From Artemia franciscana (taxonomy: Eukaryota > Arthropoda > Branchiopoda > Anostraca > Artemiidae), in contig NC_088879.1 of assembly GCF_032884065.1 (NCBI RefSeq), forward strand, positions 16,870,489-16,934,488: a stretch of 64,000 bases of DNA. The letters are read 5' to 3'. A program made the position numbers and the translations under genes. The first letter of the stretch is position 1. Each line of letters starts with the position of its first letter. The notes beneath the pieces were generated by a model. The model was given only the letters and a program-made list of their open reading frames with translations. It was not told the DNA's origin and did not search any database. This document shows, piece after piece, positions 5,974 through 34,897 of this stretch.

Positions 5974-6066
5974 TCACTTCATTCCTTGAGATTGAGGTCC
6001 AAACATTGAATTAGCTTGTTTGCTAGCAGCTCGACTTGGCGTGAAACCCAACATTTTTTGAATATT
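5974..6066 (-). CDS. TMCO1: TMCO1 coding exon 5 (terminal)
   Basis: Thirty codons and a TGA stop. The acceptor is tgttttctag|AATATTC. The peptide begins NIQKMLGFTPSRAASKQA, matching the conserved TMCO1 tail, and ends in a lineage-specific MFGPQSQGMK. It is separated from exon 4 by a 9,358-bp intron that contains the nested LINE cluster. Confidence 0.93.
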   Translation of the reverse strand, partial: NIQKMLGFTPSRAASKQANSMFGPQSQGMK

Positions 6067-9000
6067 CTAGAAAACATAGATAATCATAGCACCTCTGGCA
6101 ATAAGAATCAATTTGAACTTTAATATTAAGTCCATTAAAAATAATAAAATCTAAAGTTTCTCAAAAACACAATAGAATCATTTGCGTCTCGTTTTATTTC
6201 TTGAAAAAAAAAAAAGTAAAAACACTTGTAAATTCAGAAGGTCTTTCGGACTTTAATAACTCTATTATTTTTCATTAAAAATTTGTAAAACGAACACTAT
6301 CATTTTATTTAAAATGACTTACAATCATCAAAATGACGCAAAATTTACTGAAAACCAATCAAGAAGAGCATACAAACCATGCGTGCAAATCAAGCAATGA
6401 GACTGGCAACGTGGCGTTTGTTCCGCCAACACTGGAGGTGCGGCGCTTGGATGGGCTGCATTTTATTGTATGATCCAACTAAAGTATGGGTTTGAACTCA
6501 TTGAGTTATTTGGTGTCCGTAGCGGAAATTTTTTGGGAAGCAGTCTTTTCTATTCTGCTCTTAAAAATGAATGACTTCAATTTCGAGTAACGGCGTGCTC
6601 AGTCTTCTATTGTGCTCTTAAAATTGAGCGGTAGGTCATCAATTTCGAGGTAGGTTAAAAGGGACTGTTTTGTCAAAATATTAGGTTTTTTGGCGGTCCG
6701 AGACATTTTCAGAAGGAAGAGAGTGAATTGAAGATTAACCACGAAGCAAGAGGCCTTCCTCTTCAAAAACCAATAAAATGTTGGCAGAATTCGGAATCAT
6801 CGACAAAAAAATTGTCCATCGAGGACAAACGGTCAATAAACACTTTTACACGGAGATTGTTAAAAATTGTTGCTCCGACAAATGAAGCCGACAATTCCGA
6901 GAAAGACTGTTTCCATTAAGAACTTAATGATCTAGTCAATTAAGCGGTAATAGCCATAGTTATGTACCTGAAGTGATTGGACAACATGGTTTGGGTGACA
7001 AATGATAAGGGGGTGCGATTTATAAATATTTGTGCTGACTGTGGCCTAATTGTTGGTGGCTCGTGGTTTCCAACCAAGAAATCCACAAGCATACTAGGAC
7101 TTCCCTCAGATGGAGTAACAAAAAGCGAAATTGACCACCTCTTGATAAGAAAGTGACACAGACGATGTTTGGAGGACGTGCGTCCCTTTAGTGGTGCCAA
7201 TTCGTTCTCTGATCACCAGCTAGTGATCGCCCGTTTCAACCTGAAGCTACAGACCATTGTGAAATACAAAAGAACTCTTAGAACATTTGATGTGCAGAAG
7301 CTAAAGGACAAATCATTCGACAAAACTATTGTCTATATCTCTCCAATAATTTTATCTAGCCTTGTTTGCGAGGAGAGGACAACATCTGCTGGTGAAACAT
7401 GGACCAAGATCGTGGAAAATATGCAAAGTGTAGCTGAAGAGACTCTTGGTTTTGCTAAAAAGAAAAGGAAACAGTGGATAAGTGATTCTTCTTGGAAACT
7501 CATGTCGGTGAGGAAAAGTTGAAAATTCAACTAGACTCCTGCGACCTCAGTGCCACCTCCAAATATAAAGACCATCTAGGGAATAAATACAAAGAAGCCC
7601 ACAAGGCTGTAAAAAGGTCAACTAGAGCAGATAGACGTGGTTTTTTCGAGGCCAAAATTGCCGAATCCGAAGCTGCTGCTAGTAAAGGCAATTGCCGGGC
7701 AGTTTATCGCATAACAAAAGAGATCACAGGAAATTTCAAAAAGCCTGCTACTGCAATTGAGAGTAAATCGGGACGACTGCTAACACGCAAAGAAGAAATA
7801 GATAATAGATGGAAAGAGTATTTCCATGAAATATTAAACTTTGCCCCTTCTGCAGATCCTGCAGACCCCCAGATGGTCGACTCCTTTTCCAATCAGACAT
7901 AAGTACAGAGCCAATTAGTTTACATGAAGTACACAGTACTGCGTAAACTAAAGAATGGAAAAGCAGCTGGCATTGATGTTATATATCCTTAACTATTGAA
8001 ATACGGTGCTGGTGTTCTAGCTGAGCCGCTTCACCAAGTGTTAATGCAGATATTGCGATACTGAGGATTTTCCCACAGATTGGAAGAAAGGGGTTATAGT
8101 GAAACTATTTAAGAAGGGTAGAACTACTGATTACAATAATTGGCGAGGTATCACCCTACAGTCTTCAGGAAGCACTGTCCTCTGCCAAGTACTTTTGAAT
8201 CGCGTCCAAACAAAAGTTAACGCCATGCTCAGGGATGAACAGCATGGCTTCCGACCAAGTAGGTCATGTGCTGACTTGATGTTTAGTCTTAGAATACTTA
8301 TTGAAGAATCAAATGAAAGATAGACAGAAATCATACTGGCTTTCATCGATTCCTTGAAGGCTTTCGACTCAGTCCATAGAGATTCATTGTAGAAAGTATT
8401 GCGCTACTCATGATGGGGGCTTGACTGAGTGGTTCAAAGTCAACTCGGGCGTTCCACAAGGGTGCATTTACAATACTACTACTACTACTACTAATAACTC
8501 ACTGCAGCACCAAGCCGCCTGAGGCCAACACAGCCACGCACGCTCCTCCTCCAACCTAATCTATTTAAAGCCTCCCTCTTTACACCCTCCCAGGAAGTTC
8601 CCATTTCCTTTAAATCTTTATTTATGACATCCTCCCAACCCAGACAAGGACGACCTGCTTTCCGTGTAGCCCTAGACGGTTGACCAAAAAGGACAATTTT
8701 CGGTAATCTGTCATCCTTCATCCGTAGAACGTGGCCTAGCCATCTCAACCTTTCTTTCATTATAGCCCCAGAAAGCGGGATTGAACCACACTTTTCGTAC
8801 AACCTACTGTTTGAAATACGGTCAGTCAGCCGGGTACCCAGAACAATCCGTAGGCAATTTTTCTGGAAAACATCTAGTAAATTTTCATCTGCTTTTTGGA
8901 GTGCCCATGCTTCAGAGCCATATATGACCACTGTCATCACTGTAGCTTCCAATATTCTAATCTTGGTATGTAGACTTATCTTTCTATTCTTCCAAACTTT

Positions 9001-12000
9001 TTTTAACTGTGAAAAAACGCCCTGAGCTTTAGCTATTCTACTTTTAACATCTTCACTGCTCCCACCATCTTTACTAATAATACTACCAAGGTAACTGAAG
9101 CTCCCAACCTGATCAATCTTTTCGTTACCTAATGTCACGTGTTCATCTTCACTTATTCCTATCCTTAGTGACTTAGTCTTCTTAAGATTAATTTTCAAGC
9201 CTATTTTAGCACCCTGAACTCGTAAAACCTCTAAAAATTCATTCATTTTGCTCACACTTTCATCTAATATGCTTAAATTATCAGCATAATCTAAGTTCAG
9301 GAGCGTTCTTCCTCCCCATTTGATTCCATGGTCTCCAATTGCCTTTCCTGTGCTCCCATATAAAGGGGGATAGAACACAGCCCTGCTTAACTCCTGATTT
9401 AATACAAAACCAGTTGCTAACCTCATTTCCTACCTTAACCGCAGCAGTATTATTCTCGTACATAGCGCAAATCACTTTAATGTATTTTTCTGGTATACCA
9501 TATAACGATAAGACCTTTGTTAACGCTGTTTTATCAACAGAATCGAAAGCTTGCTCATAATCGATAAAACTAAGGACCAAAGGTGTTTGACAACGAAGGG
9601 ACTTCTCAATTATTAACCTAAGAGTGAAAACATGGTCGACACATCCTCTACCTTTTCTAAAACCGCATTGTTCTTCCCTTAAAACTTTGTCTACAGCATG
9701 TCTCAGTCTAAAAAGTATCATATTACTCAGTAATTTGCTACCTACAAAGACCAGACTAATGCCTCGATAATTACGACACTCACTCTTGTCACCTTTCTTA
9801 TACAGTGGTTTAATTAAGGTTTTCCTAGAATCGTTGGGTACTTCCCCTTTTTCAAAAATCATGTTCATAATCTTCAGTAGCTTATTGCTAACCTCAGAGC
9901 CACCATATTTAAGAAACTCATTAATCATACTATCACCACCTAGGGCCTTATTATTTTTTAATCCTTTTAGTACTGTCGCTCATTCTTCCTCACTAAACAA
10001 ATCTTCCTTCACATCCAAGGTAGCACAAACTTTTTCATTTTCATCTATATCTTTTCCTGCAGCTGTATCTCGGTTTAGCACATTCTCAAAATGTTCCACC
10101 CATCTTTCTTTAACTTTTTCCTTATCACTAATTGTGGCCCCATTTCTATGGGTGCTACTCCTTTTCAATTTATTAATATGCCAGTATAATATTTTACTAT
10201 TATGTCGTCTAGCTGCATCTTCCAGATCCTCAGCAATTTTATCCATCGCCTCCACTTCACATCTCCTTAGTTCATATTTTACTGCTTTCTCCACTTTCTT
10301 TACATTCCTTTTGTTTTCATAAGACCTATCACTGAGATAATTCTTATACGAACCCCTTCTACTCTCTATTAAACCTAAAGCTTTTTCACTAATACTCCTA
10401 GTTGCAGTCTTAGCACTCTTCCCTAGGACACCATCAGCAACTTCACAAATTATTTTTCTGAAATTATTCCATTCATCTTCCACGTTGTCAAGATTTTAAA
10501 CCCTCAAGTTTAGTACTCAACTGTCCTGGAATTTTTTCTCAAATTTTCATCCTGAAGTCTACCAACATCATAACTTTCCGGGAGGGAGTTACCCTTCCGA
10601 AATTTCAGCTTTAAATTAACCTTAGACACTACTAGATGGTGATCTTTACTTTTAACATCAATAACGGCACTCCTATACACCCTAGTATCTTGTATTGATC
10701 CTGCTAGTCTTCTGTTTACAATAACATAATCAATAAGGTTTGCTGTCTTACCATCACGTGAATACCATGTCAACTTATGGGCCATTTTGTGACCAAACAC
10801 CGTATTGGTTATAACTAGTTTGTTATACCTACAAAATTGCAAAAGCCTATAGCCATTACTGTTTTCTTTTCCTACACCAAATTTACCTAAGCTAGGATAC
10901 CATCTATCCCTATTTCTACCAACCTGGGCATTAAAATCTCCTAGCAAAAACACCATATTTCTACCTGGTACCCTGTCTATTTGCTCCTGTAACTGTAAGT
11001 AAAATTCATCCGAGTCACTACTATCTCCATCAGTTGGTTCAATGGGGGCATATACTACTATAACTGATACCCTAAACTTTTCAGTCATAAAATGAGCAAT
11101 TGGCATTCTATTATTAATAATATGAAAAAAACTTCGTTTTCTTAAAGAGTTAAAGAGGCTGCGTCCCAAAGTCGAACCTTAAAACGTACAGGAATTAGAA
11201 GAGGCAGTTGGGGGGCTGCCGCCCCCCAAACCCCCAGCTTTTAAAGACTCTTTTGTACAGGTTTTTTGTGTTTTTGCTAACCCCCCGCTCTTGGCTTCGG
11301 AAAGGCCCTCTTTTAATTAACAAAAAATTGAAATGAATGAATAATGGAATAACTTCGAAAAATGTTAAACACAAGAGGACAGGAGAACCATTGCGCCGAA
11401 ACTAGTAAATAGTAACAATGAAGTCCCCCCACAAAAAAAAACCTGTACAAAAGAGTCTTTAAAAGCTGGGGGTTTGGGGGGCGGCAGCCCCCCAACTGCC
11501 TCTTCTAATTCCTGTACGTTTTAAGGTTCGACTTTGGGACGCAGCCTCTTTAACTCTTTAAGAAAACGAAGTACAGGTTTAATTTTTTTTTCATATTAAT
11601 TCTGTACGTTTTTCTACAATCCATGGTGGATGTAATTTAATAATTGTGAAAAAAAATCGCCCGTAAGGGACTTGAACCCTTGACCAGAGGATTAAAAGTC
11701 TCACGCTCTACCAACTGAGCTAATAACTTGCATGTGTGTAAATATAACTTCTCAATAGCTTTTAAAAATTTCAAATTAACATGGGCTCTTATGGAGAGAA
11801 ATCCGTTAATTTAAATAGCTAATGGGTGGTTTCTGGAAAACAGGGAAGGAGTTATCGGATCAAGCTGAAATTTCGCGGATAAGCTCCTGGGCCGTAGGGG
11901 ACCTTAACTTGTGAATTTCAGCCCGATCAGACAACGTTAAAAGGGGTGGGAAGGGTTGGAGGGTCGAAACTTTCGGGGGGTTAAGATTTTCCTACGAAAC

Positions 12001-15000
12001 TTTCATGGGCACTTACTCGGAGAATTCCGCATCGAATGAGTCTTCGTACACCCAGATCCGATGTCGGATGTGACCTGTAGGCGTGGCGAAAAAAAAAGTA
12101 AATGAATTTTAAGTGGCTATGCGTGGTTTCTGGAAAACAGGGAAGGAGTTATCGGATCAAGCTGGGCCCTATCGGATCAAGCTCCTGGGCCCTAGGGGAC
12201 CTTAACTTGTGAATTTCAGCCCGATCGGACAACGTTAAAGGGGGGCTTGGGTTGACAGGTCGAAACTTTCGGCCAGATTTTCCCCATGAAGAAAAAGTTG
12301 GAGGGGGATGAAATTTTGCAGGTTTCTTAGTTGGAGCTCGGGCTACGAAATGCATCCCTCCCCATCCGTCTGCGACCACTGGAACCGAAGATCGCTTAAC
12401 ATTGTCGTGTGTCGCCTCTTTATAGAGGCACGAGTGTGCCTCCTTGATACCTTCCCAGCCTAAACAAGACTTAGCAGCTTCCTTATTCATCATGAGCCCT
12501 ACTCCCTGTCTATGTACCCCATCCTTCCTGCCTGAGTAAACAAATTCTATGTCACCTAATTTCATGCTTCCTACCCCTGGGATATGAGTTTCTGAAACTC
12601 CTAATAAATCCAGTTCAAACCGTCTGAAGTCGTCAGTCAAAATGTCGATGCGATAGTCATTTTTTAACGTCGTAACGTTCCAAGTTCCAATTTTCATGTT
12701 CTTTAAATCTTTGAAATTATTTTGGCCTCAAGAAAAGCAGTGATCCCGGATACCACTGCAGGATGTGGACCAACATATCTTCTCAAGTCTACACCGAAGC
12801 GCTTAAGCCGGCTTTGAACCGGACAGCAATAAGTCCCTGGGACCTCCAGGAAGTTGGAGGCTTTGTGCAATCCTGGGCCCATCTTGGTCACAACATGGTT
12901 TTCAGCACTTGGCGATGCTCTTCTATCAACATGAGTCGAAATCCTGCACAGACAGTCCCAAGCCTATTACCTCCGACTCATTATATATTCATGCCTACAA
13001 ATATTATGCTACTATGGGGAGGCAGCCCATAGTAGAATAAATTAGCTAGGAAGAGGTTTTTCAGCCCGAAAACGCCCATCAAAACAAACCAAGACCAGAA
13101 TATGCTCACTGATTTTATCCTGCGGACGTGCAACTTCATAAGTGGCATCCAGTTGAATGAAAATTGCAGTTTATTTGATGCAGACTTCGCAGATGATATA
13201 GTGCTCCTTTCTCGAGAGGAGCTCCCGTACAACATAAATGAGCTCTCGAAAGAATATGAACGAATAGGTTTGGCAATAAGCACACAAAGGGAAAAATCAT
13301 GCGCAATAATGTGAAAATTGGTTGCTTCTATTACTTCCGCAAATAACAATTTCTGGTCAGATACTACTTTTAGAAAAAACTGGCAATCTTAGTTCGACAA
13401 GATTAAGACTCAATAGCCTTAAGTGAATATCCCTTTCCTTGGCAAAACCGCTGATCTTAAAATGTAGAATTCACTGATCAACTTAACTAGTTTTAACTTG
13501 GAAGATATAATTACTAGAGGAATACAAATATTGATTTTATTTGATCTGATGCGTGTCGCTATTACCCCCTTCCACCTCTCTGCCTCATTTAGTGATGGTT
13601 ATCATTCCCCTTTCTATCTGTCCACTAATGTCTCCACCGCCCGGTCTTGTTCTATTATCAAGCTGATTCATAGATCATTTAGTGACCATTATTGCAAAAG
13701 CTGGGACGACTTCTGCTAAAGAAGTTAACGGGGATCTTTAGTGAAGTAAATCTACATTATTATCATCATTGGTATTACTATCATATTGAAAACATTATTA
13801 GAGTGAAACAGAGATGGATATAATTGAGATCTAAGAAGATCCACTTATCTAAAGTATTTCATTAACTGGTCAAAAAAACCTGGAACTCAATCTGGGAGTA
13901 TTCTGATAAACCACTGTTTCAGAGGTTGCTGAAAAACTATCTGGAAATTAAACCTCAGGTAAACAGATCCAATTCTTTTGTCTTTGTTTGATATGTTAGT
14001 TCAGATGCCTTCCATTTTCGTTCGTGCTTAATTTGTAGCGCTAACGTAAGTCACTAGACATGTGCGCTTATTTTTAAGATTAAACATATTCGTGTTAAAA
14101 TAAAAACTTTTTTTGGGGAAGGGGGGGCTGGTTGCCCTCCGACCGCATTTGAATCGTAAAAAGGGAGCTAGAACTTTCAATTTTCAATCAAATAAGCCTC
14201 CTCCAATGTTTATGTGACCACCCCTTCCATAAAAACCTTTTGTGTTAACAACGGGCACCTTATATAACTTACAGCTCTTGCCTCCGAGCTGTGTAGGTTT
14301 TGTCAACCCCGGCGGCATAGTTATTTGATCTTTGGGCTATTTTGAACAAACTGGCTATCACAAAATTTTAACTGGATGCCTTCCAGGAAAAGAGAACGTG
14401 GAGGGGGCTGTTTGACCTCTGATCACTTTTGACTCTTAAAGAGGACACTGTAACTTCCGCTTCCCAATCGAATAAGCCCTCTCCAAAGTTTATATGACCA
14501 TCCCTTCCATATGAACTGCCTCTGGGGAAAATAATAACAAAAGAACACTGAAGCATTCCCTCAGATCTAAAGATCTCATGCTAAACAAGCTTAATTTAAG
14601 CTTCATTACAAATTTGACATTGTTCTTTGCTTTTTTTATTTTACTTCATTTGAAAGAATTTTATCACTTGTCTAGCTTCTTAGTAAGAGCTTAGTCAACA
14701 GATTCTGGTAAATGGCTGACCTTTCTTATTTGGGTTTATAGTTTTTAATTCGTTTTCTTTTATTTTACATGTAGTTTCATTCCGCGTTGTTAGCTTTTTG
14801 TTCCTTCCAATTTGGGTTCTTGTTTTATTTTGATCTCTACGTTGTTTGTTTTGTCCTTTTATATTCTTTTTTTCTGGTCTAAATCGTTCCCTTTATGCTC
14901 AGGAAATACGAGCCTGATTTTTTTAGACTTTTTCAATATTGCAAAAGACGAGAAGCAGTTGTCTTGGAAACTGGGAAAACTTTCGCTGAGCTAGGGTAAA

Positions 15001-18000
15001 GTAGCATTGATTTGAACAAATAATTACACTCCGTGTCTTTCATATACATTTTCAAATGATTAATTTATTTTCTCACCTTAAACACTTTTTAATCTCAGTT
15101 TCCCTATCTATATCTCTTCTTTTGTCTTTTATTTTAATCCTTTTAGTTATTTAATTTCACCTTTTTGACATTCGGACAGCGTGAAAACCCCGGATAATTA
15201 AGATAAAACTAAATTTCAGTCAAGTAAATTTAAATTTGTTTCTTTTTCTTAGTACAACCTTTCTGTCAAAGCATACTGTACTTTCAGGAAAATGTCAAAA
15301 AATAAAACAAAATAATTCTAACAGTTAAAACCAAAATTTCTGCCAAAATTTACCAAATCTACCAAATAAACAAAATTTCAAATTGTTTATAAACTGTAGA
15401 GGGTCTGAATGTTTGGTTACTCACCTGTCTAATTGACATTGTACATAGTATATACAAAAATATGAAGCTGCAATCATAGTAATTTTCTCCAGGTAAGCCT
15501 CTATGAGAAAGTCCTTGAATCCAGGAAATCGGCAAAAACGGTAATTTTGCTACAACTTTTCCTTCAAAACTGAAAAAAAAATCTAAATAGAGCAAAGTAA
15601 GATTTAGAAAAAGAACTTTTTCAATTTAATCGTTTCCTTCCAGTGTTGTCATTTTTGGACTTGAATTGTAAATAAGTTCCAAGATTAAATAATAGTAGAA
15701 ACGTAATAAAATCAGGAAAATTTTCAGCCCCAGTACGATTTAAAAACCTAGTTCGTAGACTCATTCTCGAACACTGTATCTGCTGATTTTAATGCAGAGA
15801 TCAAACAGTTCGTGGTAACGAACTATAGACTAAGAGCAGTATGAGCCCCTGCTAACCAAGATTATAAAAAGGTAAAAAATAATGCCAGTGCGTAAAAGCA
15901 AACCCACCCCTCGCCCCGATTCTTTCTAAAAAAAAATAAATAACGCCAAACTTTATTAGCGTTAATAATGTTTCCGCAGATGATCTCCTCCCCTCTGCAA
16001 CAGAATCCCAGCTTAGCAGGCATACTTATCTAGGTCAAGAAAATGCACAACATGATTTTTTTTTCATGCTTATATGCCATAGAAAGTGAATTTTTACTTG
16101 TGGAATTTTCGACAATTCCTCAATAAGTAAGATATTACGCTCAAAATGTCGAAATTTTACCCGAGGGCACTCTAAATTAATTTTGGGGATAACAATATCT
16201 CCCTATCTACTTTTATGTCAAGGCATGAACAGGACTGTCGGCCTTAGTGACTGATCTCAGTTCTAGCGGTTTGTTCTTTCCCCCTACGGAGCTTTACACT
16301 GTTTGACACGGCTTTACACGGTTAATTTACATATATTTAGCTTGTAAATTCTGTTTTTGCAGGCACAAAGACGAAAAAATTTGCTACTGAAATAACTTCA
16401 AGAGGGAAATATTGTCATTTTCGAAGCAAATATTTGGAAAAGCTGGTAATCAATGCGGTACTGACAAGAAAGCTGATTGAAGACAATGGCTTTGATTCTT
16501 GAGCACTTAAAAAAAAGGTGTGTTTGGTTTTGAAAAAAAAGGGAAGAAAACAGCTTTGATTCCTGAAGCTGTTTCTGGCTCTGACAAAAAAAAAACAATT
16601 GAAGGCAGCGGCTTCGACTTATGACACGTAACAAGCGTCTTTTTAGCCTACATACTCATTCCAAAACGTTTTCCCTCTCAAGTAATTACGGCGAGCAACG
16701 AATCTTTAAGATTAGTCTATTTCATGTTTTAATTTCATGTTAATAGAGAGGAGAAGGGGCATGTACAAGAACTGACAAGAAGTAATAGACCATATGAAAA
16801 CAAAAGCATTGTAAAGAAAGTGGAGAAAGCATTAGAATATGAACTAAGGAGGTGTGAAGTGGAGGCCATGGATAAAATTGCCAAGGATCTGTAAGATGCA
16901 GCTAGACAGAAATATATTAAAATATTGTACTGGCATGTTAATAAATCGAGAGGGAGTAGTCAATCTGGACTTAAAAATAGGAGCGGGGCCAAAATTAGTG
17001 ATAAGGAAAGAATTAAAGAAAGATGGACAGAAAATTTTGAGAATGTACCAAACCGAAATAGAGTTGCAGGAAAAGATATATAAATAACTTTATTCCTCAC
17101 GCCTCTTAATACAAAATTTCTATACAACTGACACCTTTTTAAAAGAAAAATGTTATGGCAGGGCGAAGAGCGGATCGACTGCGGCACGATTTCCATTTAA
17201 AGTCGTCCTACGTTAAAAGTCTCGAGATATGGTATGTTTATGTTTAGGCTGTTGGAGATAGAAGAACACGAAGAAGTTTGTAATACCTTGAATGTGAAGG
17301 AAGATTTGTCATGTAAGGAAGAATTAGCGACAGTAATAAAAAGATTAAAAAATAATAAGACTCCAGGTGCTGATAGTGTGGTAAATGAGTTCCTTAGATA
17401 TGGCGGCTCTGAGGTGATAAGAATGAGTGTGGTAATTATTGAGGCATTAGTTTGGTCACTGTAGGTAGAAAATTACTTAGTAATATGATACTTTTTAGAC
17501 TGAGAGATGCTGTAGACAAAGCTTTAAGAGAAGAACAGTTCGGTTTTAGAAAAGGTAGAGGATGTGTCGACCAAATTTTCTCTCTTAGATCTGAGGTCAA
17601 ATTTTCTCTGAGGGCCTTTGGTCCTCAGTTTTATAAACTATAAGAAAGCGTTAGATTCTGTTGATAGAAAAGTTATAGCAAAGGTTTTATCCTTGTATGG
17701 TATACCAGACAAATACATTAAAGTGATTAGTGCTATGTACGAGAATAACACTGCTGACGTTAAGGTAGGAAATGAGGTTAGCACCTGGTTTCGTATTATA
17801 TCAGGAGTTAAGCTGGGTTGTGTTCTATCTCCCTTTATAGGGACCATTTTGATGGATTTTTTCTTAAGAAGCACAGGAAAGGCAATGGGAAACCACGGAA
17901 TCAAATGGGGACGAAAAACTCCCCTAGACTAAGAGTATGCTAATGACTTAAGCACCATAGATGAAAGTGGGAGCTCAATGAATGAACTTTTAAAGAATTT

Positions 18001-21000
18001 GCGAGTTCAGTGTTCTAGAATAGATTTGAAAATAAATTGTTAAGAAGACTAAGTCACTAGGGCTATGAATAAGTGAAAACGAAACGGTGGCGTTGGGTAA
18101 CGAAAAGATTGATCAGGTGGACAAATTCACTTGCCTTGGTAGTATTATTAGTAAAGATGGGGGGGGAGCAGTGAAGATGTTGAAAGTAAAACAGCCAAAG
18201 CTCAGGGTGCTTTTTAAAAGTTAAAAAAAAAGTTTGGAAGAAAAGGAAGATAAGTCTAAAAATCAAGATTAGGAAATTGGAAGCTACAATGACATTGCCT
18301 ACGGATTGTTCTGAGTAACCGGCTGACCGACCGTATTCCAAATAGTGGGCTATACGAAAAGTGTGGTTCAATCTCGCTTTCTAGGACTATAATCAGAGAA
18401 AGGTTGAGATGGCTAGGGCACATTCTGCGGATGATAGATTTTTAAAGATTGTCCTTTTGGGTCAACCGTCTAGGACTAAACAGAAAGCAGGTCGTCCGCG
18501 GCTGGGATGGAGAATGTCAAAAAAAAGATTTAGAGGAAATGGGAACTTCATGGGAGGATGTAAAGAGGGAGGCTTTGAATAGATTGGGATGGATGAGGAG
18601 CGTGTGTAGCTGTGTTAGCCTCACGCGGCTTGGTTGCTGCTGTGAGTTGTTCGTAGTTGTAGTAGTGTTCCATGCTTTCTTAGGCCAGTATTAGCAGTAA
18701 AAAATAAAAATTAAGTTAAAAAAAGTAAAATAAATTAGAACTGAAAATACTTACATTGAATTAAAAACTCCAAGTAAGGCAGTAAAGGTGAAACCGATGG
18801 CCAACATCGACTTCATTTTCACAAGCTGCAAATCTCTACTGTTGGCTTTCAGTTTCTCCTCGTCCCTCTCCAGTCTCTTCTTATGTCCTTTATCTAATAG
18901 CTCACTTCCTTCCCTTTTCTTCTCTACTGAAAGAGTTTAAAATAGTATAATTAATTTCCATTTTGATTTTCTTCTTTGATTCTTAAATTTCCTATTCAGG
19001 GTGCAAGAATATATTGAAGAAACTATAGTCACTACTGTATTTTAATAGATTAGACAGAAACTATACTACCTCATTGTGCTATGATTGAACATTAGAAAAC
19101 ACATTTTCTTTTTATCAGGGTCGTTTTGAGTTTTAAAAATAGCCAGTGCACAACATAGTAATAAAAAAGCGTGTTTTGGAAGAGATGCACCATAAAAAAA
19201 AAACATTGGGGAGATACACCATCGAAGAGTCAATTAAGACAAAAAAAGGTTTAAGTCAAAAATTTTCAAAGACCTCCTAAAGCGATTTAACATTTTGAAG
19301 CTGAGATATTGGATTTATGCCCTTTTGACAATATGCATGCAAATAGCATGTTTTGATTTAGTCTAAAACAATCTCCTCAACACTCCCCCTCAGCCTTTCT
19401 GGTGACCCAGGAATCAAACATGTCACCATTTCCAAATAACAAAATGTATCAGGAAAACAAGTTTTTGTTAACCCTTTAGCAAAAACTTAATAGTTTTTTA
19501 CCAAACAGAAAAGAACAAGAAGAAAAATTTGGCCTGACAGGCATGAAGGTGGAACTAGTCGAAAATTGTGATGCTAAACTGGTTAAAATGCATGATGAGC
19601 CAAACACGGGATTGGCAAAAATATAGTTCACTTTCTTAGAGCCAAAATCTGCAGAGCAATCTTTTTTTTTTCGCCAATTCCATGTTCAGCTTATCCTCTA
19701 TTTTAATCTGTTTAGCAACATAATTTTCAACTAATTTCACCTTCACGCCTGTCGAGGATCTTTAATGGTAGTAAGAATGTACAAAAATAGAAGCAAAGTA
19801 AGTAAGACGGCACTAGACCCTTAAGGTCCAAACTGGCGGTGCTGATCTGGATCAAGAAACAATGATTTTTGGAGTAAAATTGTGCTTTTATAGATTCTAA
19901 GCGCGAAAACTTCTTTAAAGTGGTCTGCATTAAATTTTTAGGCCATGAAGATGCTCCAATTAAAACTTCAGGACCAAGGGTGCCTCAGTAAAGACAAAAG
20001 ATCAAGGAAGCATATCTAGTTGCATTGATTCGTAACGCCCTTTTTTAAACAACAAAGCAAAACTATTTTTATAAATGGCCTTGCCATGGATGTATTTAAG
20101 CAAACAAACCATAGCAAACAAAGTAACTACAACAAAGTAAACTATAGCAAAGTAATAAAGGCTTTGAATGGTGGATTGAAATACGCGTATATTCTTGGGC
20201 GTTTAGAACATGGGAGTCGGGATCGCTTCAGCCCAGTAGAACACAAAAAATTACACTGATTTTCAATTCATGTAAATGATAATCCCACTCTCTGGCCACC
20301 CAAATTTCTACTAGTACAATTATTATTATCAATCTAATTTTATTTGAATTTTGTCCCAGAGTTAAATTACAGTCCAACATCATGATTGTTAATTGGAAAA
20401 ACTGTAAAACAACTCTGAAAGCCATGGCAAATTAAAGCGACATTTTTTGGAAAAAAGAAATTGTCACAATATAAGATCGTTTTCTGTCAAAAATCATATT
20501 GATACTTCATTATGGAGCAGAGATTTGGGTCGCAAGGAAGCTGCTCATCTTGAATTATGTAATATGAACTGTTCAATAGATTGTATGGGCTGGATATGTA
20601 CGTTCACTCCCAGTATTTGAAGGGGGGCCAGGATCTATAGCCTCTAAAAAGTAATATACTCTTTTCAATTATATAATCTTGTTTAATTACCAAGAGATAG
20701 TTTACTTAAGATAATATATCAAAAGTGATAATAGTAATGTAAACTAGTCCCTAAAGTCCCCTAATTTAGCAATGTAAACTCAATTTCAATTCCAAGATTA
20801 GATAAGTAGAATTTATATAGTAAAATATGCATATATTAAACTAACAAAAATATAAAGTTATACTATATAGCTAGAGATTAAAGAACTTACACTTTTTGCT
20901 TTGCTTTTCAACTTCAGTTTTTAATCTCTGATACTTCTCTGTCCTATAAACCAAAAGCCATGTCAATCCTGTAAACAAAATCATTCTTGCAATTGTAACT

Positions 21001-24000
21001 TCATTCGAAGATATTAGTAAATATAATTCACAACCCTGAAATGTACTGTTAGTCAAAGCTAAAATCTATACTACAAAATGTTTTGAGATTCTGCAAGGTA
21101 ATATTGATGTCTCTGCAGGCCCCACCACATCCATCTTTCAAGAGAGGTCCAACCAAACTATCATTTATACATCAGCATTTCCTGATTTATCTGTGGGGTT
21201 TTTTGGATTTCTTATGTCTAGTCTAAAAATGCTCTTTTTCCATGCTCGCCTCTCATCATCCTTCAATTGGGATTTTTAGTAATACTCTCCACACCATCTT
21301 CTTTTTCAGGATACAAAATGAGATGCTATGGGACTCTACTCTGCAGACTAGATAAAAGTATTGAAGTCCAGATTTTAACAATGACTTAATATTGTTTTTC
21401 CCCATATTTTGTAATATACTTTCTGACAACAACAATGCAAACCAAGAATGCCACGGGGGGAGGACATTCTCAGGTGGTTCACAACTGGTAGGATAACGTT
21501 GTTTACAAAATGCGATCATTGCATGACATTTACATACAACTCTTCATGCTTAGATTTTCCCAAGTAGAAAAAAAGTTGTATTTTCTACCACTGCAAATCA
21601 TATAGCCATGCCTTCAAGAAGAAGAGTAAAAGTCCAAATTGAAATATTACTTGATTTTCACTTTTTGCACAGAGCAAGTAAAGTTAATATTTATAATAGT
21701 CTGTGTTGTAATTTTGACGATGCTCAGCTCAGAAATATTTTAATGTCATACACGAAAAAGGCAATCCATTGCAGGTGACGTTGATCTACATAACCATATA
21801 AGGAACGTTGTGTCTGTCTAGGATACAATCTTAAATAATCCTTTCTACATAGTTATTGATCCTGTATTTATTATGTGTCTCCTCACAGGCGTGGACTTGG
21901 ACACATGTCTTAACTCCGCTTGGCTTCTCTCCGCTTCGCAAATAATTATGATGTGTCTATCCGTGGACATTTTCAATTGACTACTCCCCGATAATAACCA
22001 TGCTTAGAAAGCAGAACTGATGGAAATAGAACTCTCTTTTCTTGGAACTTCAAGGAAGACCTAAGGCTAAGATGGAGAAGAGTGGATAACAGCAGGCTTG
22101 CTGACATTGACAATTCTATCGAACTGTTTGCTGAAGAACTTAACATAAAGATCTCTTTATTCACAAGAGTTCAAAGAAAAAAAAATCATGTTCCAGGTTG
22201 GACTGCCATGCATCAAAAAGCACACTTACAAAAAAAAAGCAAGAAACTTATTTAGGTGTAACCGATCCTGGAAAATATGTGCAAGAAAACACAGAAAACA
22301 TATGTGTGAGAAACACAGAAACAGAAAAAAAAGTTTTCTAAAAAAAAGTCATTAGGGAAATTATGGCTTTTTGGACTTCTCGTATTGGAGACAAGCTCAT
22401 TCTACAAAGCTCTGAAGAAATTTTCCCAAGCATACAAAGAAAAAGAAATAAGTTGCATACCCCCAGTATTCGACAATGGGTTTCAACCAGAGGTTGATGC
22501 ATAAACTAAGCTTAATCATTTTAAAGTAATTTTTCTTATAGGTTTGTCTGAACACCAAAAAAAAATACCTGGAGTAAGTCCAATAGCCCAGTTAGAACCC
22601 ACAGCTATTACCTCTGATAAAAACCTATAACACACAACTAGTCATAATTAGTAATAATCAGTTATGCTTACCGAATGTGCAGTGTCGGTGAACAATTTCT
22701 ATACTTCTTTTATATATATTTATTTCTTTGTTGCATAAAACACATCATGTGTTTAATAATAAATTGTAAAAAAAGAGCTTTATAGCATATGAGCTTTCGG
22801 AAATAAAGTATAATTACCCAAAATAAAATATTATCTCAGCAATATATATCAACAAAGGAAAAAGCTTTTGGCTTTTTCTTAGCAACAATCTAGTAAAGAA
22901 CGAACCACGTTGCCTTTTCTTTTACCCAAGCTGCTCTTTGAAGTAATTAACTAAGAAAAAAAAAACTTTTCCATAAAATAGGTTTTTCAAAGAAAAGTAA
23001 TGAGCTTCATTAGACAAAGAATTAAAAAAAATAGAATCAAGTAATCAAATAATGGGGCTCAAAACCCCTATGCCTTCCACGGGCAAAAACGAAATTTACA
23101 CTATACTGGAATTTTTTTTTTTAGTGTTTTTACTTTTATAACTTTAGCAAATCAAATATTATTAATATTATAAGGAATAAATATCACCATCTGTACATTA
23201 AACTAACAATGCACACTCATGTGAATTTTTTTCACATTATGATACACCCATATCATCAATCTGTATACAGATTAAATAAAAAAAAACTAATTTTTTTAGC
23301 TGAAAGTAAGGAGCGACATTAAAACTTAAAACGAACTGAAATTACTCCGTATATGAAATGGGTTGTCCCCTCCGCAATCCCTCGCTCTTTACGCTAAACC
23401 TCTTAATTGTTTTAAAAAGTAGAATTGTGGCAAAGAGTCAAACTTTAGCGTAAAGAACGAGGGATTGCGGAAAATTTTGATGCGTTGACTTTGGGAAAAA
23501 AATGAGCGTGGGAGGGGGCCTAGATGCCCTCCAATTTTTTTGGTCACTTAAAAAGGGCACTAGAACTTTTCATTTCCGTTAGAATAAGCCCTCTTGCGAC
23601 GTTCTAGGACCACTTGGTCGATACGATGACCCCTGGGAAAAAAAAAACAAACAAAAAAAACAAACAAACAAATAAACACGCACCCGTGATTTGTCTTATC
23701 TTGGGGAGTAATTCATCCCCAAAGACATAGTTATTATGATTTTCGACTATGCTGAACGAAATGGCTGTCTCAAAATTTTGATCCGTTGAGGGGCCTAGAT
23801 GCCCTCCAATTTTTTTGGTCACTTAAAAAGAGCACTAGAACTTTTCATTTCCGTTAGAATGAGCCCTCTTGTGACATTCTAGGACCACTTGGTCGATACG
23901 ATGACCCCTGGGGGAAAAAGATAATAAAAAAAAATAAAATAAAAAAAATAAACACGCACCCGTGATTTGTCTTCTGACAAAAATTACAAAATTCCACATT

Positions 24001-27000
24001 TTTGTAGATAGGAGCTTGAAACTTCTACAGTAGGGTTCTCTGATACGCTGAATCTGATGGTGTCATTTTCGTTAAGATTATATGACTTTTAGGGGGTGTT
24101 TCTCCCTATTTTCCTAAATAAGGCAAATTTTCTCAGGCTCGTAACTTTTGATGGGTAAGACTAAATTTGATGAAACTTATATATTTAAAATCAGCATTAA
24201 AATGCGATTCTTTTGATGTAGCTATTGATATCAATTTTTTAGAGTTTTAGTTACTATTGAGCCGGGTCGCTCCTTACTACAGTTAGTTACCACGAACTGT
24301 TTGATAGTATGTTTTGATTTAGTTCAACTTTCCCGTCAACGTTTCCTCAAATATTTTTTCAGTATCCTCAGCCTTACTAGTACTCGCTATAGAAGTAGAA
24401 GTTTTAGTGACGTTAATGGTAGTAGTTACATTAGTTAGGTAGCTGTAGAAGCAGCAGTAGTTGTAGTGTAGTACCATGCAAATATGGCCTTTTTGGTCAA
24501 TTGATCACCTGCCGTATCATTTCCTGAAAGTCCCAAATTAATATACTTAGTCATTCTTCAGTTCCATCTTTTGACATACCATATATTTAGTTCAAAACTC
24601 CCCTCAAAATTACCTGAACAACCCATCTTAGTTCCCTTCGTACCTTGGGAAAGTAGAAGTCAACCATGCATACCTTTTCATATACTATATGTGAACAATA
24701 AACAAATTGCCTTGCTTGCATCCCTAAACGCACAATTACTGAACTTTCCAACAATGCTGAAAAAATGATGTCTCAAAATTTTGTTTGGATGTTTGTTTTG
24801 GAAAATGATGTGTGTGGGGGTGGGGGAGGTTGCTCTAAAGTCACTTTGACTTTTAAAAAGGACACTATATTTTCCAATTTCAAATCAAATGAGACCCACC
24901 TAAATTTTATACAACCACCAATTCCACAAAGATCTTATATACCCCCAGGGCATAGCTTAAAGCCCTTTCCCTAGGGCTCTGGGGGGTTGTGTCAACCATG
25001 AAGGCATTGTAATATGTTCTCTGGACTATTTTAAACAAAATAGCCATCGCACAATTTCAATCAGATGCGTTTGGTAAAAAGAAGGGTAGTTAAGGGGGGG
25101 GGGGCTAGTTGACCTCCATCACTTCTGACTCTTAAAAGGGAATTATAACTTCCAATTTTAACCAAATGAGCCACCTCTAAAGTTTATAAAACCATCCCTT
25201 CCATAAGATCCTTAAATGCCCCAGGGGAAAAACTTACAGCCTTTGCTCCCAGGCTCTGGTGGTTTGTATCAAACCCAAAAGCTTTCTTATATAATCTTTG
25301 GACAATTTTGAATTTAAATACTGTCTTAAATTTCGATTGGCTTTAACTTAGGAAAAAACAACGAGTGTGTAGGGGGGGAAGGGTGTAGCTGGGGTCTGAT
25401 CATTTTCTCTCTTAAAAGGACATTTGAACTTCTGATTGTCAATCCAAACGGTCCCCTCCAAAGCATATACGACCTTGAACTTCTGATTGTCAATCCAAAC
25501 GGTCTCCTCCAAAGCATATACGACCACCCTTTCTATAAAACCTTATATGCCCCAGGGCATAACTTACACCCCTTGCTCCATGAGCTGGGGAGGCTGTCTT
25601 CCTCAAAGACATAAGGGGGTGGGCTGGTTGCTCTCAAATCCCTTATGAATTTTAAAAAGGGCACTATAACTTCCAATTTCAAGTCAAATGAGCCCCATCT
25701 GAAGTTTACACCACCGCTAATTCCGCGGTTTCCAAGCACTAAATATGATCTCTAGACAAATTCAATTATGAAGACTATGAAACAGCATTTATTTTATTTA
25801 TTATGTTTAATATCTCTATATTATTTTATTTATGATTTTAATTGGGTAACCACTACAAAATAAAATGTCTATTAGATAAAATAATTCTGAATCAAGAAAT
25901 TATTGGGAGCAACTTCTGAAAGCCTTATTAACTAATGAAACTAAAACTCCTTGATTACAGAAACTGGCTGGCACAAGTTAAAATGCAGATATATATCACT
26001 GTTTGTAGGCTTTGAGAAAAGCATATCAAAATCTCCTTTAATTAATAAATCCAGTTGCTTTGGTGTTCTCATTTAAGCAACCCTTTTAGCGTCTGTGATC
26101 TATAATCTCAATTGCGACTGTTGTAGATATTAATATTATCTTTTTTTTTATTTCTTTGTTTTGGATTTTATTAACTTTAAGTTCAGTTTAGTTTATCTTT
26201 GTTTTTATCAGTCTTGGAGACGCCTTGTTTCATACAGGCAAAATATCCATGTCATTTGAGTTATTAATTTTTTTGCTACTAGCCATAGTCTCAATTATTT
26301 GTTCATTGTTGAGATTTATTTTTTTGTTGTTCTTTGTCATGGTCTGAACTAGACAGTTCAGCTTTAGATTGCTCATTTTCTCTAAGGAGTATTCTAGGCT
26401 ATCCAGAGATACCAAGATGGGCCAGAATAATATCTACACATTATAGGCAATATAATTAGAGCGACTTAGTGAATCTTGGACAGAGGATAAGAAAATGTTA
26501 AGATTGAAAGCAAATACATTGCTGCTGTAAGTTTATGACTCTTGATTTACCCCTTTCCTTAATTGGTCAAAATTATATCCCAATTCCGTAGCCAGTATAA
26601 TATAGAGGGGAAAGAACTTGACTTTATGTTCTTGGACTTCCTGCTTTATAAAGATAATTATGCATTAAGGGGACCTACTCTTAATACATACTACAAAGTA
26701 CACAGATTATCTCTATTGCCTAAAAGACTTCTTTATAAAACAAATCCAGGTTTCCCATCAAGTGTTAACTAGCAGTAAGATGACAGTAACATATGCAAAA
26801 AGGCAAATCACCTAAAAGCACGATTGACTAAGACAACAGCAATTACTGTTTTTCATTTTTAAAGACTTTTTTAAACAAGTAAGGGTGCTTTGGATTGCTA
26901 TGTGACTGCTGAGTTGGTATTCTTGGTTTTTCCTGCTTAGTGTTCTCAGTTAGCAGACATTAAGTTGAGTCATAAACCAAAATATTCTAAAGAAACCTAT

Positions 27001-32106: not shown

Positions 32107-32426
32107 GTTTATTACATAACTTTCATAGCTCTAGGCTAATTTACAGTTGCAAAACATTACATGTTAAACATAAATGCAAAGAAAACAGCACAACATTACA
32201 TGTAAACATAGATAAATATTAAAACATTACATGTTAAACATAGAAAAAAAGATGGCACAAATGCAGAGCTTTAATTGGATGAACATAGGCAGTAAAGTGG
32301 CCACCCTTTCCTCACAATAGTCCAAAACTTAAATTAATCATTGCACTTCTCACACATTTACTTTCTATTAATCAAATCCCCTAAAAAACAACTAGGCTAC
32401 GTTGTATTCATATATAATTTATAAGT

Positions 32427-32814
32427 CAACAAAGGTTGACTCTAGTTTGGCATTGTAGAGTGAAGTGCATGAGAGGTGTAGCATAAGTGGGAGATGGTAA
32501 CAACAGCATTGAAAGGGGTAAAATTAACCTTGACTTGAGGCCCACTTAATTGGACCATCTGTCTTGGCTTTTTCTACAATTGGCCATGACTTGACTTTTT
32601 CCACAACTATTCGATTTGAATTAAAAATTGAATAGTTGTGGGCAAGTCAAGTCATGGCTAATTGTAGAAAAAGCTCAGGCAGATAGTCCAATTAAGTGGG
32701 CATCAAGTCAAGGTTAATTTTGCCCCTTTCATTGCTGTTGTTACCATCTCCTACTTATGCTACACCTCTCATGCATGTTAATCCACATTGCCAAACTAGA
32801 GTCAACCTTGTTGA
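32427..32814. mobile_element. Palindromic foldback element, about 390 bp
   Basis: Arms of about 190 bp (32427-about 32620 and about 32623-32814) are inverted copies with few mismatches. Ends are caacaaaggttgactctag and ctagagtcaaccttgttg. The centre is cgatttgaattaaaaattg. A further partial copy of the right end follows at about 32888-32932. No coding capacity. Confidence 0.9.
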
Positions 32815-33597: not shown

Positions 33598-34897
33598 ATT
33601 TATATGGTAAAATTCTAGTTAATTGACTTCTTGCTATCTTGGAAAGGGTATAGGTTAGGAAAATGAAACTTTCAGGGATGGGTCTATAGGCTAAAGTATG
33701 TCCTTGGAAGGTATTTTAAAGTACCCACCTCCATTCCTTTTCCCTCTAGAGGGCCCTGAAATTTGTCTACATGACAGGTCTATACCTATTGAAATTTTGA
33801 CAAAACAACATTTTACCTTGATTTTTAGTCACTAGTTGCTCTTTCTCTGCCTTTAGTTCTGAAAATGCAATTCCTGTTATTTGAGTAGAATTTTGGGTAA
33901 AATTGGTGCAAACAGTATTACTGGCTTTCACATAAAGTGAATATACTACTCAATACCTTTTTTAATTCTGTTTACAAATATAATAATTGCTTCTACTGCA
34001 AATTCAGATTTAAGGACTTTTTGACCTCTTAAAAATGACCTATATATGGGGTCATTACAAAACGGGGTAACAGTTTAGAAACAAATTTGGGCTATATATT
34101 TGCACATCAGGGGGGGGGGGGTAAAGCATAGCATATATTAAATACGTAAACTAACCATTACTGTTTTTTTGTTTTTGTTTTTTATGTGTTTGTGCTGTTG
34201 CACTGGTGATTTCTCTTCTCATTAAAATTCAATGTGCACAAACAAATAAAAAAAAAGAAAAAAAATACAGCAATGGTTAGTTTACATATTTAATATATGC
34301 TATGCTTTACCCCCATCCCCCTGATGTGCAAATATATAGCCCAAATTTGTTTCTAAACTATAACAGATTTGTGATGATCCCATATATAGGTTATTTAAAA
34401 GAGGTCAAGAGGTCAAAAAGTGCTTAAATCTGAATTTGCAGTAGAAGCAATTATTATATTTGTAAAGAGCATAAAAAAGGCATCAAGTGGGATATTCACT
34501 TTATATGAAAGTCAGTAATACTGTTTGCACCAATTTTTACCAAATTTTGAGCCATATCAATGTTTTTTTTTCAAAATTTAGGAATTGTATTTGTATATCT
34601 TTAAAACCTTATAAAATAGGATTGAGCAAAGTTATGAAGCTGAAAACAATTTTGTTGTACTTTAATTAAGCAGAAGATCTATTTTGCAAGATTTCACTTT
34701 TATAACACACATATTTTTAAAGGGTCATCAAAGGTCAGGGTCCTGTAGAGGGAGAAGGATTGGAGGTAGGTACTTCAAAATGCCTCCCCAGGACATACTT
34801 TAGCCTGTAGACCAATCCCTGAAAGTTTCATTTTCCTAACCTAAACCCTTTCCAAGATAGCAAGAAGTCAATTAGCTAGAATTTTATATTTATACTT
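33598..34897. mobile_element. Large palindromic foldback element, 1.3 kb
   Basis: The left arm (33598-about 34195) and right arm (about 34233-34897) are inverted copies around a spacer of about 37 bp near 34215. Matching blocks include aattgacttcttgctatctt (33624) with its inverse near 34865, caaacagtattactg (33910) with its inverse near 34520, and gtaaactaaccatta (34147) with its inverse near 34275. No ORF beyond chance. Related inverted units at 41950-42400 and 53721-54068. Confidence 0.92.

What the first reader, a model, noticed from the sequence alone, without database searches (positions are those of the whole stretch)
6066..15425. Four-level nested insertion inside TMCO1 intron 4
LINE A (plus) breaks at its RT motif B (SGVPQGCI, 8468) and resumes before motif C (LTDFILR, 13102). 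LINE B (minus) fills the gap. LINE B is itself broken inside its endonuclease after GWEGI (12447) and resumes at INNRMPIAHF (11125). That gap holds a palindrome, a tRNA-like sequence and duplicated modules. The order of insertion can be read directly: TMCO1 intron, then A, then B, then the composite insert. This gives a relative clock for the families.
Basis: partly seen in the sequence, partly recalled or inferred. Interest (0 to 1): 0.72.

Follow-up and report, generated by a model that had tools for sequence, protein, structure and literature searches.

The report
Flipping-end mobile element inside nested retrotransposons
In a brine shrimp gene's intron, one old jumping gene was split by a second, and that one by a young, protein-less jumping DNA of a large near-identical family whose one end is a long palindrome found in both orientations; the nesting is ordinary, but the flipping end hints at an unusual copying step.

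Summary
The nesting is real. In Artemia franciscana (identified by assembly statistics), TMCO1 intron 4 holds LINE A, split by LINE B, itself split inside its endonuclease by a third element. It inserted between A and T without target duplication; joining its flanks restores the LINE B frame. Its ends fit Helitron2-type rolling-circle elements in part: the 3' end does, but the 5' hairpin is enlarged into a ~468-nt palindromic cap and the 5' repeat lies deeper. Two things I saw in no paper searched: (1) the cap occurs in both orientations (30:18 of 48 copies), scattered over the family tree, and some arm variants are shared by both arms; (2) the 3' end, only with its hairpin looped out, matches the target motif learned from 43 insertion sites (top 0.08% of A^T sites); a second family's does too, more weakly with its full predicted stem. 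I propose that the transposase reads one motif at target and 3' end, and that the cap is re-copied or inverted during transposition. The autonomous partner was not found; the flipping mechanism is inferred.

The parts
15425..15569 (-). TMCO1 exon 4
   Evidence: (PDB 6w6l); splice sites by eye
5974..6066 (-). TMCO1 exon 5 (last coding exon, NIQKML...MK stop)
   Evidence: stop position by eye
7157..8469 (+). LINE A, left part (endonuclease end to RT motif B); its 5' start, probably upstream near 6940, not fixed
   Evidence: genomic copies tested for 7500-8465 only
13099..13315 (+). LINE A, right part (before RT motif C onward); similarity to other copies fades after ~13315
8474..11117 (-). LINE B, 3' part (second part of endonuclease, RT, 3' tail of GTA-type repeats)
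12448..13084 (-). LINE B, 5' part (first part of endonuclease and 5' leader); the boundary with LINE A is uncertain by some tens of bases
11118..12447 (+). whole Helitron2-like non-autonomous element, 1330 bp, internal deletion of ~400 bp relative to L003
11118..11572 (+). 5' palindromic cap (flop orientation); exact arms 11131-11267 and 11436-11572, loop 168 nt; in other copies the inner arm also runs to the terminal sequence
11151..11159 (+). 5' copy of the asymmetric subterminal inverted repeat TAAAGAGGC, 33 nt from the 5' end
   Evidence: found on L003; position in the window by eye
12414..12422 (+). 3' copy of that repeat (GCCTCTTTA), 25 nt from the 3' end
   Evidence: as above
12425..12442 (+). 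3' hairpin GAGGCAC-GAGT-GTGCCTC, followed by CTTGA and host T
11664..11723 (-). tRNA-like relic inside the element; present in 43 of 43 copies tested
   Evidence: no ARAGORN call in window or in 42 copies
11810..12272 (+). two modules, 11810-11976 and 12108-12272, 86% alike; each query finds a match in 43 of 43 copies, though the two cross-match, so a copy with one module counts for both
23273..24304 (+). copy of a second family of similar ends (13-bp inverted repeat at 32 and 26 nt from its ends, 3' hairpin, TTTGA); its palindrome is incomplete here
   Evidence: palindrome of the family seen in L079

Best explanation
Three successive insertions lie in TMCO1 intron 4: LINE A, then LINE B into A's reverse transcriptase, then a non-autonomous Helitron2-like rolling-circle element into B's endonuclease. 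The third belongs to a young, high-copy family. A transposase supplied in trans (inferred) nicks at A^T with a pyrimidine box about 11 nt upstream (shown as a target preference). It recognises the element's 3' end in the same way once the 3' hairpin is extruded and brings the subterminal CTTT box to the right distance (shown as sequence match, inferred as mechanism). The 5' end is a palindromic cap whose two arms are kept alike and whose loop is found in both orientations (both shown); this most likely arises during transposition, when the cap folds and one arm is copied from, or exchanged with, the other (inferred).
For: Nesting. One element: 28 of 28 palindrome-selected loci hold both ends (27 independent, L024 duplicates L023). 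Of 30 loci chosen by the 3' end (three of them copies already held), 17 show a complete palindrome, 12 are cut by the locus edge, one (L053) is internally deleted. No target duplication: 43 sites, longest flank match 4 nt, 5 of 43 with 3 or more against 2.1 in shuffled pairs. A^T: -1 A 41 of 43, +1 T 37 of 43; box: -11 pyrimidine 40 of 43 (P 4e-10 against A^T sites of the window), -10 T 31, -9 T 26 of 43. Exact frame restoration at one empty site. 3' end with its 18-nt hairpin removed: top 0.08% of 11,638 A^T sites, hairpin kept 58%; second family, not used for the matrix, 20-nt stem removed: 0.12% against 63%. Inverted repeats at nearly equal offsets in two families. Flip 30, flop 18 of 48, window copy flop; at least 11 changes on the body tree against 12.5 in shuffles. 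Derived states in both arms of one copy: 8 cases at 6 sites, 0.03 expected.
Against: No autonomous partner was found: one 10-kb locus of the genome's abundant Helitron holds neither end. The 5' inverted repeat lies 33 nt inside, not 0-2 nt as defined for Helitron2. The 9-bp repeat alone is weak (2 of 300 permutations reach it). In family 2 the folding program's own stem is 22 nt, and removing that scores only in the top 2.7%. Which end is 5' is assigned by analogy; read the other way the element begins with TC. A further insertion into a known repeat (L017, in the second family) is not exact: three A where the relative has one G (read). Most arm variants (25) are in one arm only; one (column 121 C) is in one arm of two copies, and two columns in the homopolymer and terminal parts, left out, differ in a single arm of 7 copies each. 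Polishing of the assembly with short reads could have altered arms.
Confidence: 0.7

Rival explanations
1. The cap flips after insertion, by ordinary host recombination or replication template switching between the 150-bp inverted arms; it has nothing to do with transposition.
For: Long inverted repeats are known to invert and to be corrected towards each other in cells (general knowledge); orientation is close to random on the body tree, as repeated inversion in place would also give.
Against: 25 arm differences stay uncorrected in one arm, so correction is not continuous in resident copies. Two pairs of loci with identical flanks, so duplicated after insertion or haplotypes (L023/L024 and L041/L042), agree in orientation, but this is only two pairs and they are recent.
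Confidence: 0.35
2. The gap in LINE B was filled by separate small insertions (a foldback MITE, a tRNA-derived SINE and satellite-like modules).
For: Each part resembles such an element taken alone.
Against: The same two ends occur in 28 of 28 palindrome-selected loci, the tRNA-like stretch and a module in 43 of 43 copies; the flanks rejoin in frame.
Confidence: 0.03
3. The element is moved by another enzyme that leaves no target duplication (IS200/IS605-like HUH single-strand transposase, or a tyrosine recombinase), not by a Helitron.
For: Target box beside one end and its mimic at the other recall IS200/IS605 (recalled); no Helitron partner with these ends was found.
Against: Asymmetric inverted repeats with the 3' copy directly upstream of a terminal hairpin are the published Helitron2 signature; this genome is rich in Helitrons (8.81%).
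Confidence: 0.15
4. Flip and flop, or the nest itself, are assembly errors.
For: High-copy near-identical repeats are hard to assemble; the assembly was polished with short reads.
Against: PacBio reads from 20-kb size-selected libraries should span the 468-nt cap and the 1.7-kb element; the 43 sites have different flanks with a shared target motif; LINE B's frame rejoins exactly. No raw reads were seen.
Confidence: 0.05

Closest known systems
Non-autonomous Helitron2 elements (Bao and Jurka 2013, PMC3627910; passages seen)
   Same: Asymmetric terminal inverted repeats, 3' copy 20-30 nt from the 3' end directly upstream of a hairpin; 5' repeat lies in a 5' hairpin; T at the 5' end; TTTT | T/C target without target duplication in Helitron-1N1_CRe.
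   Different: 5' repeat 33 nt inside; the 5' hairpin is a ~468-nt palindrome with ~150-nt arms in two orientations; pyrimidine box 9-12 nt upstream of A^T, not directly at the junction. (The paper's CRe-1, 2, 3 families do have target duplications.)
HINE / DINE-1, non-autonomous Helentrons (PMC4067079; passages seen)
   Same: Subterminal inverted repeats, 3' palindrome, tandem central repeats, no target modification, T-rich targets, high copy number.
   Different: A^T rather than TT; large palindromic cap; variable T number at the ends not noticed here.
FoHeli elements of Fusarium (PMC5148889; passages seen)
   Same: Asymmetric terminal inverted repeats, hairpins at both ends in two subgroups, precise empty sites.
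   Different: Fungal, with coding members; small hairpins; insertion between TNAT and A or T.
Rolling-hairpin replication of AAV/parvoviruses (PMC5714925, passages seen; flip/flop recalled)
   Same: Terminal palindrome in two orientations with arms kept alike.
   Different: No capsid or Rep gene here; a genomic transposon with the large palindrome at one end only.

Membership tests
Helitron2 (non-autonomous) | Short inverted repeat (8-15 bp), 3' copy 20-30 nt from the 3' end, immediately upstream of a hairpin | tested here: met
   9 bp at 25 nt, two bases before the hairpin; second family 13 bp at 26 nt, one base before it (gaps by eye). The 9-bp one is reached in 2 of 300 permutations
Helitron2 (non-autonomous) | 5' copy of the repeat 0-2 nt from the 5' end | tested here: not met
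   33 nt (and 32 nt in family 2) from the 5' end
Helitron2 (non-autonomous) | 5' hairpin involving the 5' repeat | tested here: met
   The repeat lies in the arm of the 468-nt palindrome; far larger than those described in the passages seen
Helitron2 (non-autonomous) | No target duplication, T at the 5' end | tested here: met
   43 sites, longest flank match 4 nt; one exact empty site; T first in 28 of 28
Helitron2 (non-autonomous) | Ends shared with a RepHel-encoding element | tested here: inconclusive
   Of 150 scored Helitron_like_N matches 20 were cut out as 3.5-kb or shorter loci and one more as 10 kb; neither end found in any; the 3.5-kb loci may not reach the element ends
Helitron1 (canonical) | 5' TC, 3' CTRR with hairpin 10-12 nt upstream | tested here: not met
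   5' TAATATG, 3' CTTGA with hairpin directly before it; in reverse orientation TC is met but CTRR is not
Helitron1 (canonical) | A^T target without duplication | tested here: met
tRNA-derived SINE | Pol III head at the 5' end, target duplications, 5' truncation | tested here: not met
   tRNA-like stretch is internal and degenerate; no duplications; both ends in 28 of 28 loci
Rolling-hairpin replicon | Terminal palindrome in flip and flop | tested here: met
   30:18 of 48 copies
Rolling-hairpin replicon | Covalently closed hairpin intermediates | not testable with these tools
   needs DNA from cells

The most novel reading that the evidence does not exclude
A eukaryotic rolling-circle (Helitron2-like) lineage has evolved a terminal palindrome that is resolved by hairpin copying at each transposition, as in parvoviruses, giving flip and flop ends; and its transposase uses a single recognition code, a pyrimidine box plus A^T, presented linearly in the target and by hairpin extrusion at the element's own 3' end.
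Probability: 0.25. Interest if true: 0.75.

Novelty: new variant of a known kind. Interest (0 to 1): 0.5.

Why it matters
Nested insertions are commonplace. The element is less so: if the cap is re-copied at each jump, rolling-circle transposition and rolling-hairpin replication meet in one eukaryotic transposon. The target/3'-end match gives a concrete, testable rule for how a Helitron2-type transposase might find both its target and its own end. A large near-identical family in an animal that is easily cultured makes it testable.

Tried and rejected
Rejected: SINE/MITE composite; a link to the genome's abundant Helitron, as far as looked at. Relatives were sought in plasmids (8 records, all over the tRNA-like stretch only), viral contigs (none) and phages (none). 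Rfam gave only the tRNA-like match above gathering threshold in the window; a SNORD20 match was below it. The near-palindromes at 32426-32814 and 33889-34547 showed no match to this one. LINE A's right piece and LINE B's C-terminal piece show no significant protein similarity. A script on the ends timed out and was rewritten. LINE B in other genomic copies, and hence its exact 5' end, could not be tested: the requests did not complete. A random sample of copies by pattern was sought and not answered. Arm test: one search counts only columns 15-135 of the arm alignment (119 columns used); outside them one search shows, in single arms, column 7 and column 138 (7 copies each) and a few singletons. 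One of the six both-arm sites is a one-base gap (L034). Rows dropped before the flip count: of 58 loci, 2 duplicates (L024, L042) and 14 without a complete palindrome in the stretch held (L001, L029, L031, L035, L039, L040, L044, L045, L048-L050, L052, L053, L056); the six loci added are 6 of 11 listed and not fetched before. After checking, I lowered the probability of the novel case from 0.27 to 0.25, because the folded stem of family 2 gives a weaker match than the stem I had typed.
Full report
Where it is. The tool places the window at C17:16870489-16934488 of a 1,270,528,402-bp assembly of 6,468 contigs. The lengths of C17 (45,252,357) and C2 (67,337,973) equal the N50 and the longest scaffold given for the 2024 Artemia franciscana assembly (PMC11492255, passages seen). 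Not all agrees: the paper gives 1,270,721,445 bp in 6,486 scaffolds, and C1 here (71,465,782) is longer than its longest scaffold. I take it as the same assembly or a version of it. The paper reports 12.75% LINEs and 8.81% Helitrons. TMCO1 runs on the minus strand with five coding exons in the window; the finding lies in intron 4.

The nest. LINE A (+) and LINE B (-) are endonuclease-RT retrotransposons by their Pfam matches, several of which are weak; a piece of A's RT is 43% identical to B's over 82 residues. I did not test their clade. That A was one element is shown by other genomic copies: 24 of 39 scored copies of its right piece have its left piece upstream on the same strand within 3 kb, 11 within 170 nt. 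In the five closest, 22-25 nt lie where the window has LINE B, and no target duplication flanks B, so B's insertion, or later decay, removed about that much. A second, 81-85% identical LINE B-type copy lies at 16740-18670 and a 69% one near 55490-56340. Removing 11118-12447 rejoins LINE B's frame without any extra base.

The third element. The 442-bp palindrome has 1,295 first-look candidates in the genome, of which 40 were scored, all (near-)full length at 99-100%; the 3' end has 1,074 candidates, 40 scored, all at 99-100%. In all 28 loci first fetched, the palindrome is one end of a 1.2-1.75-kb element with the same other end. In 42 complete copies and the window copy the tRNA-like stretch is present in 43 of 43, and each module query finds a match in 43 of 43, though the two modules cross-match. 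The window copy is 1,330 bp with an internal deletion of about 400 bp. Its body is 92.3-98.1% identical (median 96.1%) to 39 others aligned over more than 500 nt.

Ends and target. There is no target duplication: over 43 sites the longest match between left-flank end and right-flank start is 4 nt, with 5 of 43 at 3 nt or more against 2.1 in shuffled pairs. -1 is A in 41 and +1 is T in 37 of 43; -11 is a pyrimidine in 40 (null 0.48, P 4e-10), and T-richness extends over -11 to -9. The ends carry TAAAGAGGC as a subterminal inverted repeat, 33 nt from the palindromic end and 25 nt from the other, two bases before a 7-bp hairpin. A second family, with a copy at 23273-24304 and one in L079, has a 13-bp repeat at 32 and 26 nt, a hairpin and TTTGA at the same places, and its L079 copy has a palindrome at the same end. 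The 13-bp repeat is not reached in 300 permutations; the 9-bp one is reached in 2 of 300.

Shared code. A matrix from the 43 upstream flanks was used to score the elements' own 3' ends. With the hairpin in place they look like any A^T site of the window (58% and 63% score as high). With an 18-nt (family 1) or 20-nt (family 2) stem-loop removed they score in the top 0.08% and 0.12% of 11,638 sites. Of 297 block deletions tried in each family, the best are 20-nt blocks that overlap the hairpin; the 18-nt and 20-nt stem-loops rank sixth and third. Against this: the folding program draws an 18-nt stem-loop in family 1 but a 22-nt one in family 2, and removing 22 nt scores only in the top 2.7%. I read the match as the hairpin bringing the CTTT part of the repeat to the distance that the enzyme requires in a target. 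It is a sequence match, not a biochemical test.

Flipping cap. Among 42 complete, non-duplicate caps, 27 have the loop in one orientation and 15 in the other; with six more, 30 and 18; the window copy is of the second kind. On a tree of the rest of the element the orientation changes at least 11 times, against 12.5 in shuffles (108 of 500 as low), so it is near random with respect to descent, though only 4 of 39 inner branches are well supported and those force at least 2 changes. Eight derived states at six arm sites occur in both arms of one copy, against 0.03 expected; 25 occur in one arm. L032 and L037 share two both-arm variants yet have opposite orientation. This fits arms that are made alike, and loops that are turned, before or during transposition, with decay in single arms afterwards. 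Against it, one variant (column 121) sits in one arm of two copies, and columns 7 and 138, outside the counted range, differ in one arm of seven copies each; these look like run-length effects but were not resolved. Host-mediated inversion in place is not excluded.

Classification. Features were compared with papers of which I saw passages (PMC3627910, PMC4067079, PMC5148889, PMC5714925). The 3' end fits the Helitron2 description; the 5' repeat is farther inside than defined, so I call it Helitron2-like, not a settled member. The genome's abundant Helitron (7,436 first-look candidates, 150 scored) shows neither end of this element in the one 10-kb locus read. Searches for papers on flip/flop ends, rolling-hairpin transposons, Helitron palindromes and end recognition listed none that, from titles, abstract starts and the passages seen, describes these two features; most of the listed papers were not opened, and subscription journals are mostly not held.

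Limits. The assembly was made with PacBio reads from 20-kb libraries and polished with short reads, which could blur single arm variants. The exact 5' end of LINE B, and LINE B in other genomic copies, were not tested because the search machine did not answer.

Noticed in passing
L079:2315-7303 (G000:C4:41848049-41858040): An open 1,663-codon Helitron frame, 150 of 150 scored Helitron_like_N matches (of 7,436 candidates) are over the cut-off and 148 have no stop inside the match, which suggests a very recently active Helitron in this genome.
   Followed up: partly
window 16740-18670: Second LINE B-type copy (81-85% identical) in intron 3 of TMCO1, itself interrupted by about 174 bp at 17081-17254.
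   Followed up: no
window 32426-32814 and 33889-34547: Two further large near-palindromes (88% and 84% self-complementary, the second flanked by 158-nt inverted repeats at 33608-33765 and 34729-34886), without match to the cap.
   Followed up: no
window 14121-14531 and 24816-25724: Dispersed and tandem repeat modules (67-82% alike), unclassified; tandem repeats on L079:8200-9990 look similar by eye.
   Followed up: no
L017: One copy of the element sits in the 3' hairpin region of a family-2 element, that is in a sequence that resembles the target motif.
   Followed up: partly
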